Position numbers and translations under genes: made by a program. A stretch of DNA of 64,000 nucleotides from Thermodesulforhabdaceae bacterium (GTDB lineage: Bacteria; Desulfobacterota; Syntrophobacteria; Syntrophobacterales; Thermodesulforhabdaceae): contig JBBFKT010000001.1 in the NCBI GenBank assembly GCA_037482015.1, forward strand, positions 1-64,000, read 5' to 3'. The notes beneath the pieces were generated by a model. The model had not been told where the DNA came from. It worked only from the letters and a program-made list of their open reading frames with translations, and did not search any database. Below, in pieces: positions 2,807 through 41,210 of the stretch (positions are counted from its first letter, which is position 1; every line of letters begins with the position of its first letter).

Positions 2807-3115
2807 TTATCGATAGTGTTCCAGATAAGCTTTAAGCAGTGTCCGAAACAGTGGACCATGGTTTGGCACTTTGGCGTGCAGCAGTTCATGAACGATCACC
2901 TCGGCGCGGAACTTAGCAGGTTGTTTCAGCAACTCCAGGTCGAACGTTAGCCTGCCTTTAGATGAATAGCTCGCCCATTTCCTCTTCATCCTTCGAACGT
3001 GGATTTCTCTAACTTCAACGCCAATCCGTTTTGCCCACTCCTGGACTTCGGCTTTGAAAAGTTCAACGGGAACCTCATGTTCTAAAGGCTGCCAATCCTG
3101 ACCGTTTCGATTCAT
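2807..3115 (-). CDS. Small M48/YgjP-type zinc metallopeptidase
   Basis: This 102-residue protein carries the zinc-protease signature HELLH (IVHELLHAKVPNHG) followed by GPLFRTLLKAYL, as in the YgjP/WLM-type metallopeptidase domain. It is about half the usual family length and corresponds to the C-terminal catalytic part only. Its ATG overlaps the hsdR stop (ATGA), so it is the last, translationally coupled cistron of the restriction operon. Small proteases of this kind are often seen at the end of type I restriction loci. A role in controlling HsdR level is possible but is inference. Confidence 0.8.
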   Translation of the reverse strand: MNRNGQDWQPLEHEVPVELFKAEVQEWAKRIGVEVREIHVRRMKRKWASYSSKGRLTFDLELLKQPAKFRAEVIVHELLHAKVPNHGPLFRTLLKAYLEHYR

Positions 3116-6003
3116 TCTCCAAAACCTCGCATTAGAACTAGCAGTTTTTCAGCCACCGGCACAGGATTATCCACCCCGGCATTCAGAAGAACTTTGTAAA
3201 TTTCCTTACGAACTTCACGTTCATGCTGCTCGCTTGATTGCCGGTGAGGAAAGCGTTCAAGAGCATCAGCAATCCGGCGTGCCGCCTCTTTAGCATCGGT
3301 TATCTTCTCACGCCTGAACAACCAGTAAATCGTAAATTCCTGCGTGGAAAGTCCGGTTGCTTTTTGCTCTGCTTCAGCCTCCCTGAGTTCGCGAACGGGA
3401 CCCTCCACAAGCTGGCGGAGGGCTTCCTGCGTTGTGATCTGTCGCTCCTCGAACTCTCGCACGATCGCTTCAGCCAGCTCGCCAATGGAAATGAGATAGG
3501 GCTGTTCAGCTCCCTGCCGCTCGATGATCTGTCGTATGGCTTTAATTAAATTGAAAATCTTGACCGTGTCGGGTGAGTCTTCCATGGCGAGCCGTTCAAG
3601 GGTTTCAGATGTAATTCCGTAGATTGCTTCTGGTTCGCGTACCAGAGAGCCCTGAGTGTGTTTCTGAACGAGTTTCGCTGTTTTCTTGAGAAAGTCTATA
3701 GAGGCAACAGGACGTCCTTCATAGCTTGACCGTAGAACCTGATAGATTTCGCTCAAGGCTCGGTAGTCATCAAGAAATGGTCTCAGGAACTCGTCGGGAG
3801 ATAGAATTTCATAGATTTCCTGAACTTCCCGAAAATACCGATAGAATTCGTCGCGCCTTTCTGGATCACGGAAATACTCCAGGACGGCTTCCACAGCCTT
3901 GTCACCTGTGATGCCGCGAACGATGTTGAGATAACTCTGGCGTCCCTGATTTATAAGCCGTTCAAAGCGTTCCTTGAGAATATCCAGACCTTCAACCACG
4001 CCTTCAATTTCTTTTGAATCGAAAGCCAAAGCTTTCTCCAGGTTATCGAATATGCCCACAAAATCCAGAACAAATCCCCCTGGCTTCCTTCGGCCGTTTT
4101 CGTCTTCGTAGGGGCGATTAACTCGAGCGATTGCCTGAAGCAGAACATGATCTCGCATGGGCTTATCAAGATACATGCAGTAGAGTATGGGAGCATCGAA
4201 CCCGGTGAGAAGTTTTTCGGTGACAATCAGGATTTTTGGAAGCTGGTCAGCCTTGCGGAACCCTTCCCGTATGCGGCGCTCTTCATCTTCGCTGAGGTGA
4301 AAAGCACGTAGTTCGGGAGGGTCCTCGGCTCCGGCGCTGATAACAACCCTTGAGTAGTCAGCAGGTAAGTGCTGATCCAATAAAATCTTATATCGACAGC
4401 AAGCTTCTCGATCCACCGCCACGAGGAATCCTTTATAGCCCATTGGTTCGATCTTTTCCTTGAAGTGTTTTGCCACGAAGGCTGCGATTCGCTCCATGCG
4501 CTCGGAGCTTTTTAGCATGTTTTTGAGCGTAACGGCTCGTTCCAGCACGCGGTTTATATCCTCAACATCGCTCACACCCTCAAGTTCAACAAGATTCAGA
4601 AATTCTCGCTCCAGTACATCCCGGTCAACCTTGAGTTCATTCGGCGCCAGTGCGTAGTGAAGCGGTACCGTGGTGCCATCCTGAATAGAGTCGCGAATTG
4701 AATAGCGATCAAGGTAGCCATGTGGGGGGTCATCAACACCGAAGACTTTGAATGTCCCTTTACCATAAGCTGTTCGGTCGATTGGTGTGCCCGTGAAGCC
4801 GATGTAGGTTGCTTTGGGAAGAGCGCCCATAAGGTAGTTACCGAGGTCAGCCCCTGTGGATCTGTGCGCCTCATCCACGAGAACGAAAACATTGGTTCGA
4901 GAGCAGATGTTTGCCGGTATGTCCTTGAATTTCTGAATCGTTGAAACGATAAGCCCGCGGCGGTCTGATCGAAGAAGTTCAAGAAGGTGTTTCCTGCTGT
5001 CGGCGATTTCGGCGTGAGCGAACCCCACCGCCTGGAGATTGGAAAAAAGTTGCTGCTCCAGTTCATTTCGATCAACAAGCATTATAACTGTTGGGTTTGC
5101 AAAGGCAGGATCCTGTATCAACCGACGAGCCACAGTGATCATGGTGTAAGTTTTTCCCGATCCCTGGGTATGCCATACAAGGCCACGGCGCTTTTTGGGG
5201 TCTCTAGCGCGCTGTATGACTCGCTCCACAGCTCGCATCTGATGGGGTCTCAGAACCACTTTGGAAAGTTCTCCGTCTCGTCGAACAAAGAGAATGAATT
5301 CCGTAAGTAGTCTGATTGTTCGAGAAGGTGCGATGAAGGTCTTAACCAGTGTTTCAAAATCTCCTGCCAGTTCGTCTCGCCAGTTCAGGATGTTCTTGTG
5401 TGATAGGTTCCATGTGGCGGCATACAGGAATTGAACCAGGTGCGTTAGTGCATAAAGCTGAGCCAGAGCCATGAATTCGGGTCCATCCTCGTGATAGCGG
5501 CGGATCTGTTCAAGCGCTCGAATCATTCCATCGATGCGTTTCGAAGACTTGGTTTCCACTACGAGGACAGGGATTCCGTTCACGAAGAAAACAAGGTCGA
5601 ATCGGATGCGGCGGGTTCCGCTCTGGAAAGGCACTTCGTCGCTCACATGGAAGGAGTTGGCATCGATGCCCAACGGATCCAGCAGGCGCACATTTCGTTC
5701 CCGCCTTTCTTCAGGGATGAATACGGTCTTAAGCCCCTTGAGGAATTCCCATGTCTCCAGATTTCCTTCGATGTTCGGGCGGACACGAATCACTCTGTTC
5801 GCCACATCATCCGCTCGCTGTAAATCCACCACGCCGGGGTTGAGGGCTTGTAATTGCCGGACAAGGACTTCATGGAGAACCAAACCAGTCTCACCACGCC
5901 GGAGACGCTTTGCCTCCTCGGGTGGTAGATATTTCCATCCCGCCTCCTGGGCGTAGCGGAGGAAGGGGTTCTGAACGGTGTGGCGTTCACTGAAAATGGT
6001 CAT
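3112..6003 (-). CDS. hsdR: Type I restriction enzyme, R subunit
   Basis: This is the motor and nuclease subunit of a type I restriction system. The N-terminal nuclease domain shows the PD-(D/E)xK residues (Asp136, then VVETKSS with Glu150 and Lys152). The superfamily 2 translocase follows: Walker A TQGSGKT (about 279-285), DEAH (377-380) and GFTGTP (402-407). The C-terminal third is helical, as in subunits that dock onto the HsdM2-HsdS core. At 963 residues it is normal length and appears intact. The ATG at 6003 has GAGGA upstream. It is encoded after hsdM and hsdS on the same strand, but the transposase gene lies between hsdS and hsdR. Confidence 0.95.
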   Translation of the reverse strand: MTIFSERHTVQNPFLRYAQEAGWKYLPPEEAKRLRRGETGLVLHEVLVRQLQALNPGVVDLQRADDVANRVIRVRPNIEGNLETWEFLKGLKTVFIPEERRERNVRLLDPLGIDANSFHVSDEVPFQSGTRRIRFDLVFFVNGIPVLVVETKSSKRIDGMIRALEQIRRYHEDGPEFMALAQLYALTHLVQFLYAATWNLSHKNILNWRDELAGDFETLVKTFIAPSRTIRLLTEFILFVRRDGELSKVVLRPHQMRAVERVIQRARDPKKRRGLVWHTQGSGKTYTMITVARRLIQDPAFANPTVIMLVDRNELEQQLFSNLQAVGFAHAEIADSRKHLLELLRSDRRGLIVSTIQKFKDIPANICSRTNVFVLVDEAHRSTGADLGNYLMGALPKATYIGFTGTPIDRTAYGKGTFKVFGVDDPPHGYLDRYSIRDSIQDGTTVPLHYALAPNELKVDRDVLEREFLNLVELEGVSDVEDINRVLERAVTLKNMLKSSERMERIAAFVAKHFKEKIEPMGYKGFLVAVDREACCRYKILLDQHLPADYSRVVISAGAEDPPELRAFHLSEDEERRIREGFRKADQLPKILIVTEKLLTGFDAPILYCMYLDKPMRDHVLLQAIARVNRPYEDENGRRKPGGFVLDFVGIFDNLEKALAFDSKEIEGVVEGLDILKERFERLINQGRQSYLNIVRGITGDKAVEAVLEYFRDPERRDEFYRYFREVQEIYEILSPDEFLRPFLDDYRALSEIYQVLRSSYEGRPVASIDFLKKTAKLVQKHTQGSLVREPEAIYGITSETLERLAMEDSPDTVKIFNLIKAIRQIIERQGAEQPYLISIGELAEAIVREFEERQITTQEALRQLVEGPVRELREAEAEQKATGLSTQEFTIYWLFRREKITDAKEAARRIADALERFPHRQSSEQHEREVRKEIYKVLLNAGVDNPVPVAEKLLVLMRGFGE

Positions 6004-6028
6004 GGTTTCTCATCCTCTTCTAAATGGC

Positions 6029-6700
6029 TCAATTGGGGTTTGTAGTGGCACAGGGCTGTGCGGTTCCATAGAGTATATTTTTGCTAGGCGTCCGCCGATT
6101 GGTCATCATGCGCCAGATCTCACGCGCCAGAGGATCGTGATCGGTAGCGTCCGGGTTATAACGGTCCATGTGCCATCGCAGGGGGTTGTCGCGGATGTAC
6201 TGGCGGATAGCGTTCAAAACCCGTTCGGTGCGGATGATGTGTTCGTAATAATTGCGTTGCCAGACGAGTGCACCAGGCGTCCCACGGTATTGGTTGATGC
6301 GGTGTGTAACGGCGGATTTGAACGACCGGACGATGGTAGGGATGGAACCCAGCACCGGTTGACCGAATTGTTCCATGGTTTTCCGCACGGCCGATTGTAG
6401 GGGCACGGCATGCCGTGCCCCTACGTCACCCACGATCCAGATGATGCCGTGCACATGATTGGGCATAATGACGAATTCGTCCAATTCCGTGTGCGGGAAA
6501 TGGTTGGGGATGGCCAACCAGCACTGGCGGGCAATTTCCCCCAACGCATTCAACACCATTGCCCCATTGTCTACATAACCAAACAACTGTGCTCGTTCAT
6601 ACGTGCACAGAGTGATGAAATACGCGCCCGGTTGGGTGTAATCGTAGTTTTTTAGTCGGATGGACTGGCGATGATGGTGTTGAGGGTCATACAGCGGCAT
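6029..6700 (-). mobile_element. REP-associated tyrosine transposase (RAYT, Y1/IS200-like)
   Basis: The protein of about 223 residues has the Y1 HUH-nuclease features: YFITLCTYER near the N terminus, the metal-binding MPNHVHGI (HxH), and the C-terminal catalytic tyrosine in QYIRDNPLRW. I chose the ATG at 6700 because MPLYDPQHHHRQSIRLKNYD is the usual family start; a further ATG at 6733 lies deeper inside hsdS. The start overlaps the end of hsdS by 14 bases. RAYTs are single-copy, domesticated IS200/IS605 relatives that process REP palindromes. A 28-bp perfect palindrome lies in frame within this gene and resembles intergenic palindromes elsewhere in the window. The frame is intact. Confidence 0.88.
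6397..6424. repeat. REP-like perfect 28-bp palindrome inside the RAYT gene
   Basis: The half-site is GTAGGGGCACGGCA followed directly by its reverse complement. Read on the minus strand it encodes VGARHAVPL within the transposase, between the HxH motif and the catalytic helix. It matches in form the intergenic palindromes at 10649-10666, 20729-20748, 21114-21147 and the degenerate one at 51279-51331. Confidence 0.85.
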
Positions 6701-7385
6701 GATCTTCTCCGGCAAATTGTTGCACAAACTCATGCGGCAGGCGGATTTTTGCCGTCATAAGGTTATGTAACAGCGACCGAAACAAGCCCTCCAGGGCCTG
6801 TTTGCGGGCTTCTTCAGCGCGAATTTTTTCATCAACTGATTGGAGAATGCGGGCAATTTCCTGCTGTTCGGGGAGGGGAGGGAGGGGGATAACAGCCTGA
6901 CTGAGCGCTTTCCAAGATGTGCGTGGGTGATTGACCCCTGTGGTTGTGGCTATGGCATGTAACAAAATATGATTGGAGTGCATCAGATAGGCGAGAAAGT
7001 AGTTATCAATAATGTCAGGTTTACCTACCAAGACCAAAATATCTGTTGAGCAAATGCCTTCCCATTTAGCAATAGCCGCTTTGTCCAAGTAAGGGCGGAG
7101 TTTACCGTAAAGAATATCGCCTGGCTTGAAAACCGCTTTAGCACTTTTGATTTCAGTGGCGAACCCGTGTCTTCGGATGAAAATATCCCCGGAATCAAGA
7201 TGTTCTAATCCAATATACTTTGCATTGCCTGCTTCTGTTGGTAAAACGGTGCCTACTCGTAAAGTTACTACCTCCCCCAACCTCACCACCTGCCAATCTT
7301 CCGGCAAAGGACCAAGTTCGGTCATGTGGTAGCCTGCGGGGAATTCTACGCCGCTTAAGTGGTTTGCATGTTGAATCTCAGACAT
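6687..7385 (-). CDS. hsdS: Type I restriction specificity subunit, single-TRD (half-size)
   Basis: At 232 residues this is about half a normal HsdS. It has one target-recognition domain opening with the typical MTELGPLPEDWQVVRLGEV (about 21-39), then one conserved helical arm (IPLPPLPEQQEIARIL to SLLHNLMTAKIRLP). Half-size S proteins of known systems dimerise to recognise a symmetric bipartite site, so this need not be a broken gene. The ATG at 7385 is preceded by AGGAGG at good spacing, and the ending LMTAKIRLP is the natural C terminus, arguing against truncation by the adjacent transposase. It sets the DNA sequence methylated by HsdM and restricted by HsdR. Confidence 0.88.
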   Translation of the reverse strand: MSEIQHANHLSGVEFPAGYHMTELGPLPEDWQVVRLGEVVTLRVGTVLPTEAGNAKYIGLEHLDSGDIFIRRHGFATEIKSAKAVFKPGDILYGKLRPYLDKAAIAKWEGICSTDILVLVGKPDIIDNYFLAYLMHSNHILLHAIATTTGVNHPRTSWKALSQAVIPLPPLPEQQEIARILQSVDEKIRAEEARKQALEGLFRSLLHNLMTAKIRLPHEFVQQFAGEDHAAV

Positions 7386-7534: not shown

Positions 7535-8896
7535 CTATTTTTGCCCAATTTGCCCAATTTGTGCCCTATAGGCAGTCCCACGCCCCCTCTGACCGCCTGT
7601 TTTGATCAAAATGCCCTTCTGGACGAGATCGGTTAGATCATCCGATGCGGTGCGCTTGCTAATTCCCGCAAGTGCCTGGTATTCCTGGTTCGTGATACTA
7701 CCGCGCTCTTTGACATACATCACAGCCTTGATCTGCCGCTCATTAAGCCCCATCTTCCGTAGCCGTTCCGGCGTGTATGGGTCTTTGAAGAAAATCACTC
7801 GCACGCCGCCTTGCCAGTTAGTAAACTCCGGTTGCGGCAAATCCTGTGCCCGGCAAAGATCCACGATGCGTGTTGTGCCGCTTCCCCAGCGCTCGATGAC
7901 TCCAGCAAAGTAGAAAGCCTGGGCGATCAGCGGATTGCGAAGCACGGAGGCATGCGGACCGTAGAGTGCCTGCGGAGTCAGCGGGGGCGGCAGTTCGCCC
8001 GGGTTCCATATTTCCAGGCGGTCTTCTTCCAGCCGAATCTGGATGTCAGCCGGATAGGTGTAATCGCGGTGGATGAGCGCGTTCACTACCGCTTCGCGCA
8101 GGGCTTCCAGCGGGTATTCCCAAATTTCGCGGCGCTGTAACCCTTCAAGTGAAAGTTCTTCTACTCGAATGTCAAAACGGACCTTCAGCACCTGGCGGAA
8201 GCGTTCCATCGCTCCGTCCAGTTGCTTCCACAGAGTGCCCTGAAAATCATGACTGTCCAGGATTTGATTTCCCCTGAAAATACCTATTCTAATTTGCGCC
8301 AGTGGAAATATACGCTGCGGGTATCTGGCAAACAGCAAAATCCCTGCGTTTTTGAGTTTCCCTTCCTTAACCAAACCAAGGTTTTCCAGCAGGAGTTCCG
8401 GTTGGGTGGGATCAATGTGAGGCAGGCGGTTACGAGCAAGGCTGGCGAAATGGGCGATGGCTTCCGAATCAACTTCGTCTGCACTCCATTCACTGAGCAG
8501 CCCGTCCCAGGTATGACCGGAGCGCGCCAGGATGTGGCGGGCTAGCTCCTCTGGGGCAAAATCTCGGTTGGTAGATCCTACTCGTCGGAAATAACGACCA
8601 CCATAGGCGACCAGGTGCGCTGCGGGTTGCACAGTGATCTTGATCACCGGGCACCCTTCTATGTTGATAACATCGATCGTCGGTGTGATGCCTAAGTGAG
8701 ATACAATAAGATTTGCGATGCGCTGGAGTTCTCGATCATCGGCTTTAACGCCAACTATCTCCCTATCATCGCGAATACCGATCAGCAAAGTGCCACCGTC
8801 TGTGTTGGCAAAAGCCGCCAGGTCTTCCAGTGCGCGATCGGTCCACTCACGTTTGAATTCCAGCCTCTGCCCCTCTGTTTGATTAAACACTGACAT
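7535..8896 (-). CDS. AlbA_2/Schlafen-like DNA-binding protein with HATPase_c_4 and winged helix
   Basis: About 453 residues from the ATG at 8896, chosen because GGGAGGGATCA precedes it. The N-terminal part (EGQRLEFKRE to GGTLLIGIRDD) is an AlbA_2/Schlafen-like DNA-binding domain. The middle (REAVVNALIHRDY, then ERWGSGTTRI) matches the HATPase_c_4 domain of RecG-like predicted regulators. The C terminus has a winged helix (LNERQIKAVMYVKERG onwards). It overlaps the 3' end of hsdM by 14 bases and sits between hsdM and hsdS, a placement also seen in other type I restriction loci. It may regulate the operon or add a defence function; no enzymatic role can be claimed. The C-terminal coding end contains short tandem runs of TGCCCAATTT (about 7517-7566). 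Confidence 0.85.
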   Translation of the reverse strand: MSVFNQTEGQRLEFKREWTDRALEDLAAFANTDGGTLLIGIRDDREIVGVKADDRELQRIANLIVSHLGITPTIDVINIEGCPVIKITVQPAAHLVAYGGRYFRRVGSTNRDFAPEELARHILARSGHTWDGLLSEWSADEVDSEAIAHFASLARNRLPHIDPTQPELLLENLGLVKEGKLKNAGILLFARYPQRIFPLAQIRIGIFRGNQILDSHDFQGTLWKQLDGAMERFRQVLKVRFDIRVEELSLEGLQRREIWEYPLEALREAVVNALIHRDYTYPADIQIRLEEDRLEIWNPGELPPPLTPQALYGPHASVLRNPLIAQAFYFAGVIERWGSGTTRIVDLCRAQDLPQPEFTNWQGGVRVIFFKDPYTPERLRKMGLNERQIKAVMYVKERGSITNQEYQALAGISKRTASDDLTDLVQKGILIKTGGQRGRGTAYRAQIGQIGQK

Positions 8897-10442
8897 TGAT
8901 CCCTCCCAGGTTGAGCATTTGCAACACTTCATTGAGCTGCTGATCGGCTCGAGCGCGCTCCTCCTCGGCTTCTTTCAAAAGCACCATCGCTTCCTCCAGA
9001 GGTAGCACTTCTTCTTTGTCGTTCAAAGTTACATAACGACTGGGCGAGAGATTGTAGTCGTTCCGTGCGGCTTCTTCACGGGTAATTATCGCAGAGAGTC
9101 CCTCCTCTGCTTTCCATTCCTTGTAGAGACGATCGATTGTTTCCACATGTTCATCAGCCAGATAGTTTTTGGGACGTCCCTTGGTGAAGAGCCTGGATCC
9201 ATTGATGAGCAAAATTTCGCCAATATGGCGCTTGCGGCGGTTTATCACAAGGATTATGCCCGGTGCGGTAGTGTTGTAAAATAGATTTTCGGGCAGAAGA
9301 ATGACAGCTTCGATCAGGTCGGCTTCTACAAAAGCCTTTCGGATATCGCGCTCACGGTTGGAGCCCTGGTTTCCGCTCCCTCGGCTGACAGCACCCGTGT
9401 CAAGGACGACAGCCATTCTTCCGCCGTCTTTAAGGGATGCGAGCATGTGTTGAAGCCAGCCCCAGTCAGCGCTTGAAGCTGGTGGTGCCCCGTAGCCGAA
9501 GCGCTCAAAGGGATCATGCTGGTAGATGCTGGCATCCTTAAAATCCTGGTTCCACATGGGATTAGCTGTTACAATGTCGAATTGGCGGAGCCGACCATCG
9601 GGGTCTAAAAAAGCGGGTCGCCGCATAGTGTCACCAGGGCTAATGTCTGCTTCCATGTCGTGTATGACGGCATTCATCCGGGCGATGGCGAATGTCGCTG
9701 GATTGATCTCTTGACCGTAGATGTGTAGGGGCTTGACGTCCCGTGGTAACTGCAGACGTCCATTTTTCTGTTCACCGTGAGTTTCTAATAGGCGGAGATG
9801 ACACTTGATAAGAAGGCCTCCTGATCCACAGCAAGGGTCATAGACTTCCATACCGGGCTGAGGCTCAAGGATACGCGCCATGAGTATCGCAACCTCTCGT
9901 GGAGTATAGAACTCACCGGCGCTTTGGCCCTGACCTTCGGCGAACTTGCGGAGCAGATATTCATAGGCACGTCCGAGAATGTCGGGTTCGACATCGTTTA
10001 GCCCCAGTCTGTGGCGACTTAAAGTTTGCACAAGTGCAGCAAGGGGTTCGTCGTCCAGAATTCGCTGACCTGCTGTAGTGGCGTTGAAATCTACGGTATC
10101 AATGACTCCATGGAGCTTTGGGTTTTCGCGCGAAACGGCACGAACTGCGTCGGTGAGATGCTGTCCAATGCCCGAGGTTATGCGAGAAATTGTTGACCAG
10201 CGAGCTTCGGGAGGAATGTAAAAACGAACCAGCTTGTGATCCTGCTCGACGAGTTTTTCCGTTACTGAACGCCCTCCCATTTCTTTGCTCAGATTTTCTA
10301 TTTCATCCTCGAAGACATCCGAAAGGCGCTTGAGAAAGACTAGGGGCAGAATATAATCCTTGAATTTAGGTGCATCAACCGGCCCACGAATGACGCAGGC
10401 GGCATCCCAGAGCCAGGTTTCTAATGTTTGAATATCCAGCAT
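8883..10442 (-). CDS. hsdM: Type I restriction-modification DNA methyltransferase, M subunit
   Basis: This 519-residue N6-adenine methyltransferase pairs with HsdS to protect host DNA. The N-terminal helical HsdM domain (about 5-145) is followed by the SAM-binding motif DPCCGSGG (202-209) and motif IV as NPMW (294-297). The latter departs from the commoner NPPF/Y; from memory the form ANPMWNQDF recurs in one HsdM subgroup, so it is probably active. The ATG at 10442 has AGGAGG upstream. It is the first gene of the minus-strand hsd operon; the sequence upstream holds a REP-like element rather than an obvious strong promoter. Confidence 0.95.
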   Translation of the reverse strand: MLDIQTLETWLWDAACVIRGPVDAPKFKDYILPLVFLKRLSDVFEDEIENLSKEMGGRSVTEKLVEQDHKLVRFYIPPEARWSTISRITSGIGQHLTDAVRAVSRENPKLHGVIDTVDFNATTAGQRILDDEPLAALVQTLSRHRLGLNDVEPDILGRAYEYLLRKFAEGQGQSAGEFYTPREVAILMARILEPQPGMEVYDPCCGSGGLLIKCHLRLLETHGEQKNGRLQLPRDVKPLHIYGQEINPATFAIARMNAVIHDMEADISPGDTMRRPAFLDPDGRLRQFDIVTANPMWNQDFKDASIYQHDPFERFGYGAPPASSADWGWLQHMLASLKDGGRMAVVLDTGAVSRGSGNQGSNRERDIRKAFVEADLIEAVILLPENLFYNTTAPGIILVINRRKRHIGEILLINGSRLFTKGRPKNYLADEHVETIDRLYKEWKAEEGLSAIITREEAARNDYNLSPSRYVTLNDKEEVLPLEEAMVLLKEAEEERARADQQLNEVLQMLNLGGINVSV

Positions 10443-20641: not shown

Positions 20642-20728
20642 AGGATTATATAATGCCCGAAGTTGTGAGAGTGTTCGAAAATTTTTCCCCTTGCAGGGTT
20701 ACTCTGGCAATAGGCTCACAGGTTGTAG

Positions 20729-20748
20729 GGGCGACGCATGCGTCGCCC
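20729..20748. repeat. Perfect 20-bp palindrome
   Basis: GGGCGACGCATGCGTCGCCC; its inner 18 bp recurs at 10649-10666. Confidence 0.85.
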
Positions 20749-21113
20749 ATTTAATTTGGTGCGCCCATGCCGGGCGCACCAGAGAACGGACGGTGAGGAC
20801 GCCGTCCCTCCCAGGACGGCGGTAGTATATTGGGAGGGTCGCCGTCCTCGGCGACCGATGCATTTGAAATTTTACGGTTTCCTGTGGCCATTAGTAATAT
20901 GAAGGAAAGATAGGGACGGTCAATTTGACCGATCCATTCCCACACCACCCGGCATGAGAGTTTGCACCGGGCGGTTCGAGAAATGTAGGGGCAACCCCCG
21001 TGGTTGCCCCGTAATCGGGCAGGCACACGGCCCTGGGATTGGTCAGGCACAAGGCCTGCCCCTACGGGACGGTTATCGTTATCTCCGGCTCACCACCGTC
21101 ACCATTTCAGGCG

Positions 21114-21147
21114 CACGTAGGGGCGAAAAATTTTTCGCCCCTACGTG
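21114..21147. repeat. Perfect 34-bp palindrome
   Basis: The half-site CACGTAGGGGCGAAAAA is followed directly by its reverse complement, with no loop. The GTAGGGGC edge is shared with the palindrome inside the transposase gene (6397-6424). Confidence 0.9.
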
Positions 21148-41173: not shown

Positions 41174-41210
41174 AAAGGGGGTTCTGAGATATTTCAGAAC
41201 CCCCTTTTTA
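41174..41210 (+). terminator. Strong intrinsic terminator after the OFA transporter
   Basis: A 14-bp perfect stem (AAAGGGGGTTCTGA and its complement), a 6-base loop, ending in TTTTTA. Confidence 0.92.

What the first reader, a model, noticed from the sequence alone, without database searches (positions are those of the whole stretch)
6397..6424. Perfect 28-bp REP-type palindrome in frame inside the RAYT gene
The transposase gene carries, within its coding sequence, a perfect palindrome with the same GTAGGGGC edge as intergenic palindromes in the window. It encodes VGARHAVPL between the HxH motif and the catalytic helix. It may be a REP unit inserted into the gene of its own processing enzyme, or a source or self-regulatory site; binding of the protein to its own gene or mRNA would give autoregulation.
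Basis: partly seen in the sequence, partly recalled or inferred. Interest (0 to 1): 0.65.

Follow-up and report, generated by a model that had tools for sequence, protein, structure and literature searches.

The report
REP palindrome inside its transposase gene
A short DNA palindrome that this bacterium carries dozens of times also sits in frame inside the gene for the enzyme thought to process such palindromes; related genes in many bacterial phyla do the same, a habit first described in 2018, and here the DNA, not the peptide it encodes, is what is kept.

Summary
Window 6397-6424 is a perfect 28-bp palindrome with GTAG at both 5' ends, in frame (VGARHAVPL, residues 104-112) in an intact RAYT/TnpAREP gene (6029-6733, minus strand). 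The genome has 66 GTAGGGGC...GCCCCTAC units, nearly all 28 bp; this core occurs 17 times.

Of 105 RAYT homologue loci, 79 carry a strict palindrome in the same loop (control region of the same genes: 1/105). Fifteen more carry an inverted REP pair and five a degenerate or gapped form; six carry none, or only a fragment. There are 50 distinct cores in 78 loci. Identical cores are read in two different frames (53 against 22; the frame containing TAG is never used). Internal and flanking cores match in 29/40 loci (permuted mean 3.1). AlphaFold2 puts the peptide in a disordered loop between the HuH strand and the next helix.

So the DNA palindrome, the enzyme's presumed substrate, is kept, not the peptide. 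Quentin et al. 2018 already described in-frame 'double-foot' REPs in TnpAREP subclass 2.4: a new member of a known kind. What looks new is near-universality, frame independence, and genomes where the RAYT locus holds the only copies. Autoregulation is untested. This gene lacks the usual REP flanks.

The parts
6397..6424 (-). double-foot REP palindrome GTAGGGGCACGGCATGCCGTGCCCCTAC, in frame, encodes VGARHAVPL (residues 104-112)
   Evidence: perfect self-complementarity; 17 copies of its 22-bp centre in the assembly
6029..6733 (-). RAYT/TnpAREP gene, intact, 234 aa
   Evidence: Pfam Y1_Tnp 23.6 bits against cut-off 23; NCBIfam REP_Tyr_transpos 66.5 bits, below its cut-off of 80; Foldseek hit to 4er8, E 7e-7
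6449..6457 (-). HuH motif codons H93-V94-H95
   Evidence: H93 and H95 invariant in A1
6344..6433 (-). codons of the loop, residues 101-130, that hosts the palindrome
   Evidence: no secondary structure, pLDDT below 50 at residues 107-119
6185..6199 (-). candidate catalytic Y179 to N183 codons (Y-x-x-x-N helix)
   Evidence: both invariant in A1; assigned as catalytic by analogy with TnpAREP
21117..21144 (.). intergenic palindrome of the same edge, other core (GTAGGGGCGAAAAATTTTTCGCCCCTAC)

Best explanation
The palindrome is a double-foot REP, the presumed cognate substrate of this subclass 2.4-like RAYT, resident in a tolerant, disordered loop of the enzyme's own gene. Shown: the element, its genome-wide family, its presence at the same loop in nearly all homologues, its independence of reading frame, its match to flanking REPs and its covariation with the protein's lineage. 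Inferred: RAYT binds and nicks single-stranded REP hairpins, so the gene carries its own substrate; repeated processing or conversion by the cognate enzyme keeps the internal and flanking copies alike and perfectly palindromic, and the internal copy travels with the gene and can seed new REPs. The loop is where such an element does no harm to the protein; the peptide itself has no role.
For: 79/105 strict palindromes in the loop against 1/105 in a control region of the same genes; 15 more with an inverted REP pair GTAG-hairpin-spacer-hairpin-CTAC at the same site (sequences). Same cores in two frames, e.g. ACGGCATGCCGT as VGARHAVPL (L016, L052, L077) and as RGTACRAPT (L055); GTATTGCAATAC as VGAYCNTPL (L112) and as RGVLQYAPT (L033, L089); phases 53: 22: 0. 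Flank core equals own internal core in 29/40 loci, permuted mean 3.1, maximum 10 in 1000 permutations. RAYT identity outside the loop correlates with core similarity across phyla, r=0.235, 0/5000 permutations. In G249 and G251 the internal copy is the only genome-wide copy of its 22-bp centre; in G233 and G269 both copies lie at the RAYT locus. Disordered loop.
Against: No biochemistry exists for this subclass in what I read. In a perfect palindrome GTAG is base-paired with CTAC, unlike the unpaired foot of E. coli and Stenotrophomonas REPs, and it is strand-symmetric whereas known TnpAREPs are strand-specific (PMC8266576). The window gene has no flanking REP. Covariation of core and lineage is weak in absolute terms: only 13-17% of cross-phylum pairs above 60% identity share a core. 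Conversion of copies is inferred, not observed.
Confidence: 0.7

Rival explanations
1. Autoregulation: the palindrome is an operator or mRNA hairpin in the RAYT gene, bound by RAYT itself or stalling transcription or translation, and is kept because it limits the level of RAYT.
For: Strong RNA hairpin (-31.4 kcal/mol, z -4.4); conserved as a palindrome regardless of sequence and frame; kept where no other copy exists in the genome, so it is not only spill-over from a large REP population.
Against: No excess of G.T over A.C mismatches clear enough to show selection on RNA (23 against 14). The site is in mid-gene, not near the start. No paper found reports it.
Confidence: 0.2
2. Passive selfish insertion: abundant REPs land everywhere, and copies survive in coding DNA only where the loop tolerates them; the RAYT gene is not special.
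For: Disordered loop; the stop-containing frame is never seen, as purifying selection on the ORF would give; REPs occur in other genes in other species (PMC3733652).
Against: Of 52 own-genome palindromes with context, the RAYT copy is the only convincing intragenic one. About 94% of homologue loci have one at the same place. Some genomes have copies only in or next to the RAYT gene.
Confidence: 0.2
3. The palindrome-encoded peptide itself is functional, for instance as part of REP recognition.
For: Position in the protein is constant, and many rows begin VGA.
Against: The same cores are read in two frames into unrelated peptides; 50 distinct cores in 78 loci; the loop is predicted disordered. 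VGA...PL and RG...APT simply follow from GTAGGGGC...GCCCCTAC.
Confidence: 0.03

Closest known systems
TnpAREP subclass 2.4 / RAYT group 4 with double-foot REPs (Quentin et al. 2018, PMC6006769)
   Different: The window gene has no flanking REPs; the subclass profile itself was not available here. Frame independence, flank-internal matching and single-copy genomes are not in the passages I read
REPIN / inverted REP doublet
   Same: Homologues L032, L036, L045, L086, L114, L124, L130 and others carry GTAG-hairpin-spacer-hairpin-CTAC at the same site
   Different: The window copy is a single palindrome, as if the centre of such a pair had been lost (a derivation proposed by Quentin et al.)
Rickettsia palindromic elements (RPE)
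   Same: Palindromic repeats in frame in coding genes
   Different: R. conorii RPE sequences carry CGTC tags according to Di Nocera et al., and they occur in many host genes
GTAG REPs within genes (Di Nocera et al. 2013, PMC3733652)
   Same: GTAG-tagged palindromes in coding sequence
   Different: There in replication, repair and other genes; here in the transposase gene itself

Membership tests
RAYT / TnpAREP (Y1 HuH transposase) | Y1_Tnp domain with HuH and a downstream tyrosine, TnpAREP fold | tested here: met
   Pfam above cut-off; H93, H95, Y179, N183 invariant; Foldseek 4er8 E 7e-7, 2xm3 E 5.8e-7
RAYT / TnpAREP (Y1 HuH transposase) | NCBIfam equivalog REP_Tyr_transpos at its curated cut-off | tested here: not met
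   66.5 bits against 80; the match falls in two stretches
[quoted passage not shown]
   no REP unit between -900 and +1300 of the HuH codons besides the internal one; homologues L034, L035, L041 do have both flanks
TnpAREP subclass 2.4 / group 4 | REP in frame inside the gene between HuH and Y | tested here: met
TnpAREP subclass 2.4 / group 4 | assignment by the subclass sequence profile | not testable with these tools
   Quentin's profiles are not held
double-foot REP | 5' GTAG and 3' CTAC around a G-C based stem, repeated in the genome | tested here: met
REP recognised by its RAYT | binding and cleavage as ssDNA hairpin | not testable with these tools
   needs biochemistry
RPE (Rickettsia) | CGTC end tag (as described by Di Nocera et al.) | tested here: not met
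   ends are GTAG/CTAC

The most novel reading that the evidence does not exclude
In this RAYT subclass the internal REP is an obligatory functional cis-element of the gene, not a tolerated passenger: enzyme and cognate site are packed into one ORF so that they move and change specificity together, with the internal hairpin also acting as a feedback site on the enzyme's own gene or mRNA. Its presence in about 94% of homologue loci, its conservation in either usable frame and its persistence in genomes without other copies are compatible with this.
Probability: 0.22. Interest if true: 0.65.

Novelty: new member of a known kind. Interest (0 to 1): 0.38.

Why it matters
How REPs spread and what RAYTs do for their hosts is open. 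Genes that carry their own substrate palindrome let RAYT-REP cognate pairs be read directly from a single ORF, across phyla and even in genomes without a REP population, and give a simple recoding experiment (palindrome removed, peptide kept) to separate passenger, substrate and feedback roles.

Tried and rejected
Peptide-level conservation was rejected because identical cores are read in two frames. An mRNA-specific test by G.T against A.C mismatches was inconclusive. Four other own-genome palindromes in longish open frames were judged spurious ORFs made of intergenic repeats. First attempts at the 80-genome search failed on list limits. A first cross-phylum test counted the window's unnamed phylum as distinct and was replaced by one on named genomes only. 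The phylum of the host organism was not determined.

Full report
Observation. Window 6397-6424 is GTAGGGGCACGGCATGCCGTGCCCCTAC, a perfect 28-bp palindrome with no further extension. It is in frame on the minus strand in ORF 6029-6733, 234 aa, as codons 104-112 (VGARHAVPL). In 20 shuffles of the window no uninterrupted palindrome with arms of 12 or more appeared; the window has two, this one and 21114-21147. The assembly of 2.7 Mb has 66 GTAGGGGC-N(6-30)-GCCCCTAC places, none for the reversed pattern, and nearly all of those listed are exactly 28 bp with a few recurrent palindromic cores. The exact 22-bp centre of this one occurs 17 times.

The gene. The protein matches Pfam Y1_Tnp (23.6 bits, cut-off 23) and NCBIfam REP_Tyr_transpos below its cut-off (66.5 against 80, in two stretches). 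In an alignment of 47 homologues H93, H95, Y179 and N183 are invariant; the tyrosine and asparagine four residues apart fit the catalytic helix of TnpAREP (N119 is named in PMC6006769; the tyrosine by my own knowledge). An AlphaFold2 model (pLDDT 82) finds 4er8, the REP-bound TnpAREP, and the ISDra2 and IS608 transposases among its 30 significant hits. The palindrome-encoded peptide falls in a loop (101-130) without secondary structure and with pLDDT below 50 at 107-119, between the strand that starts at H93 and helix 131-150.

Homologues. I took RAYT loci from relatives and from one genome per species (none of the search peptides lies in the palindrome). Of 105 loci with a recognisable HuH motif (three from the window's own genome; L028 and L117 are the same genome reached twice), 79 have a palindrome of strict quality in the 120 nt after the motif, against 1 of 105 in an equal stretch before it. 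Fifteen of the rest carry GTAGGGGC-hairpin-spacer-hairpin-GCCCCTAC, an inverted REP pair, at the same place, and L018, L043, L049, L080 and L101 have degenerate or gapped versions, judged by eye. L047, L048, L074, L088 and L115 have none and L105 a fragment. So about 94% of loci carry REP-derived DNA here, in many phyla. That single palindromes and inverted pairs share the site fits the suggestion of Quentin et al. that double-foot REPs arise by central deletion of an inverted pair.

DNA, not peptide. Among 75 units with a clear foot, 53 are read GTA-GGG (VGA...), 22 as xGT-AGG (RG...) and none in the frame where TAG would be a stop. The same core occurs in both frames: ACGGCATGCCGT as VGARHAVPL (window, L052, L077) and RGTACRAPT (L055); GTATTGCAATAC as VGAYCNTPL (L112) and RGVLQYAPT (L033, L089). 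Of 126 locus pairs with like cores, 45 differ in frame. There are 50 different cores in 78 loci, yet 52 of 92 units are perfect over 28 or 29 nt.

Cognate behaviour. Where a palindrome lies within about 450 nt 5' or 520 nt 3' of the HuH codons, its core equals the internal one in 29 of 40 loci, against a permuted mean of 3.1 and maximum of 10; L034, L035 and L041 have matching copies 5', inside and 3'. Protein identity outside the loop correlates with core similarity, also across phyla (r=0.235, 0 of 5000 permutations), and clades of the loop-free tree tend to share a core (deep nodes weakly supported). Genomes whose fetched RAYT has the ACGGCATGCCGT core have further copies of it in 6 of 8 cases against 10 of 72 others (counts; about 6e-4 by a hypergeometric sum done by hand; G231 and G298 among the 72 are one genome). 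In G249 and G251 the internal copy is the only one; in G233 and G269 both copies are at the RAYT locus. In the window's own genome the other RAYT remnants carry or adjoin other cores of that genome's REPs: GCACGGCCGTGC-like inside L018, GACGCATGCGTC at L019 and L020, ATGGCATGCCAT at L021.

Is the RAYT gene special? Of 52 own-genome palindromes with context, only the RAYT one is convincingly inside a gene; four others lie in open frames built from repeats, without signs of a real protein (judged by eye).

Mechanism. Known TnpAREPs bind and cleave folded single-stranded REPs, depend on GTAG and cut at CT (PMC8266576). The palindrome contains GTAG on both strands and CT in its 3' foot, and folds strongly as DNA (-18.3 kcal/mol) and RNA (-31.4, z -4.4), both for the palindrome with 10 nt on each side. 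I infer that the gene carries its own substrate in a harmless loop and that enzyme-driven copying or conversion keeps internal and flanking copies alike. A difficulty is that in a perfect palindrome the foot is paired and the element is strand-symmetric. Autoregulation is possible and untested.

Known or new. Quentin et al. 2018 state that in subclass 2.4 REPs, including the double-foot kind, are found inside the tnpAREP genes in frame, between HuH and Y. The finding is therefore a new member of a known kind. The quantitative points above (near-universality, both usable frames, flank matching, genomes with no other copy) are not in the passages I read; the paper's supplements could not be opened. 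This gene copy is unusual in lacking flanking REPs, which Nunvar et al. 2010 gave as constant for RAYTs.

Noticed in passing
window 3112-7385: The RAYT gene lies between a type I restriction specificity gene (one recognition domain, 6687-7385, Methylase_S) and hsdR (3112-6003), and its start overlaps the end of the hsdS ORF.
   Followed up: partly
window 20725-21147: Cluster of different palindromes and half-palindromes (GTAGGGGC types plus TGGTGCGCCCATGCCGGGCGCACCA), a mosaic REP cluster.
   Followed up: partly
own genome, L003, L004, L144, L145, L149, L152-L154, L161: Palindromes sit in recurrent flanks (CTCCGTAATAGAATT, AATCGGTGCGCCCGG, AGTTATGTGGTGAAT) in changing combinations; the RAYT copy shares the adjoining CTACAATCGG with a common right flank, perhaps a trace of where it came from or what it seeded.
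   Followed up: no
L017-L021 (own genome): Five further RAYT matches, all partial or broken, carrying or near different REP elements.
   Followed up: partly
L057 and L109: Short tandem repeats (TMR TMP..., ARGAET...) after the palindrome in the same loop, in Thermus arciformis and a Chloroflexi MAG.
   Followed up: no
window 41174-41207: Unrelated hairpin AAAGGGGGTTCTGAGATATTTCAGAACCCCCTTT, perhaps a terminator or another repeat.
   Followed up: no
window 7535-8932: Schlafen AlbA_2 / HATPase_c_4 protein next to the restriction genes.
   Followed up: no
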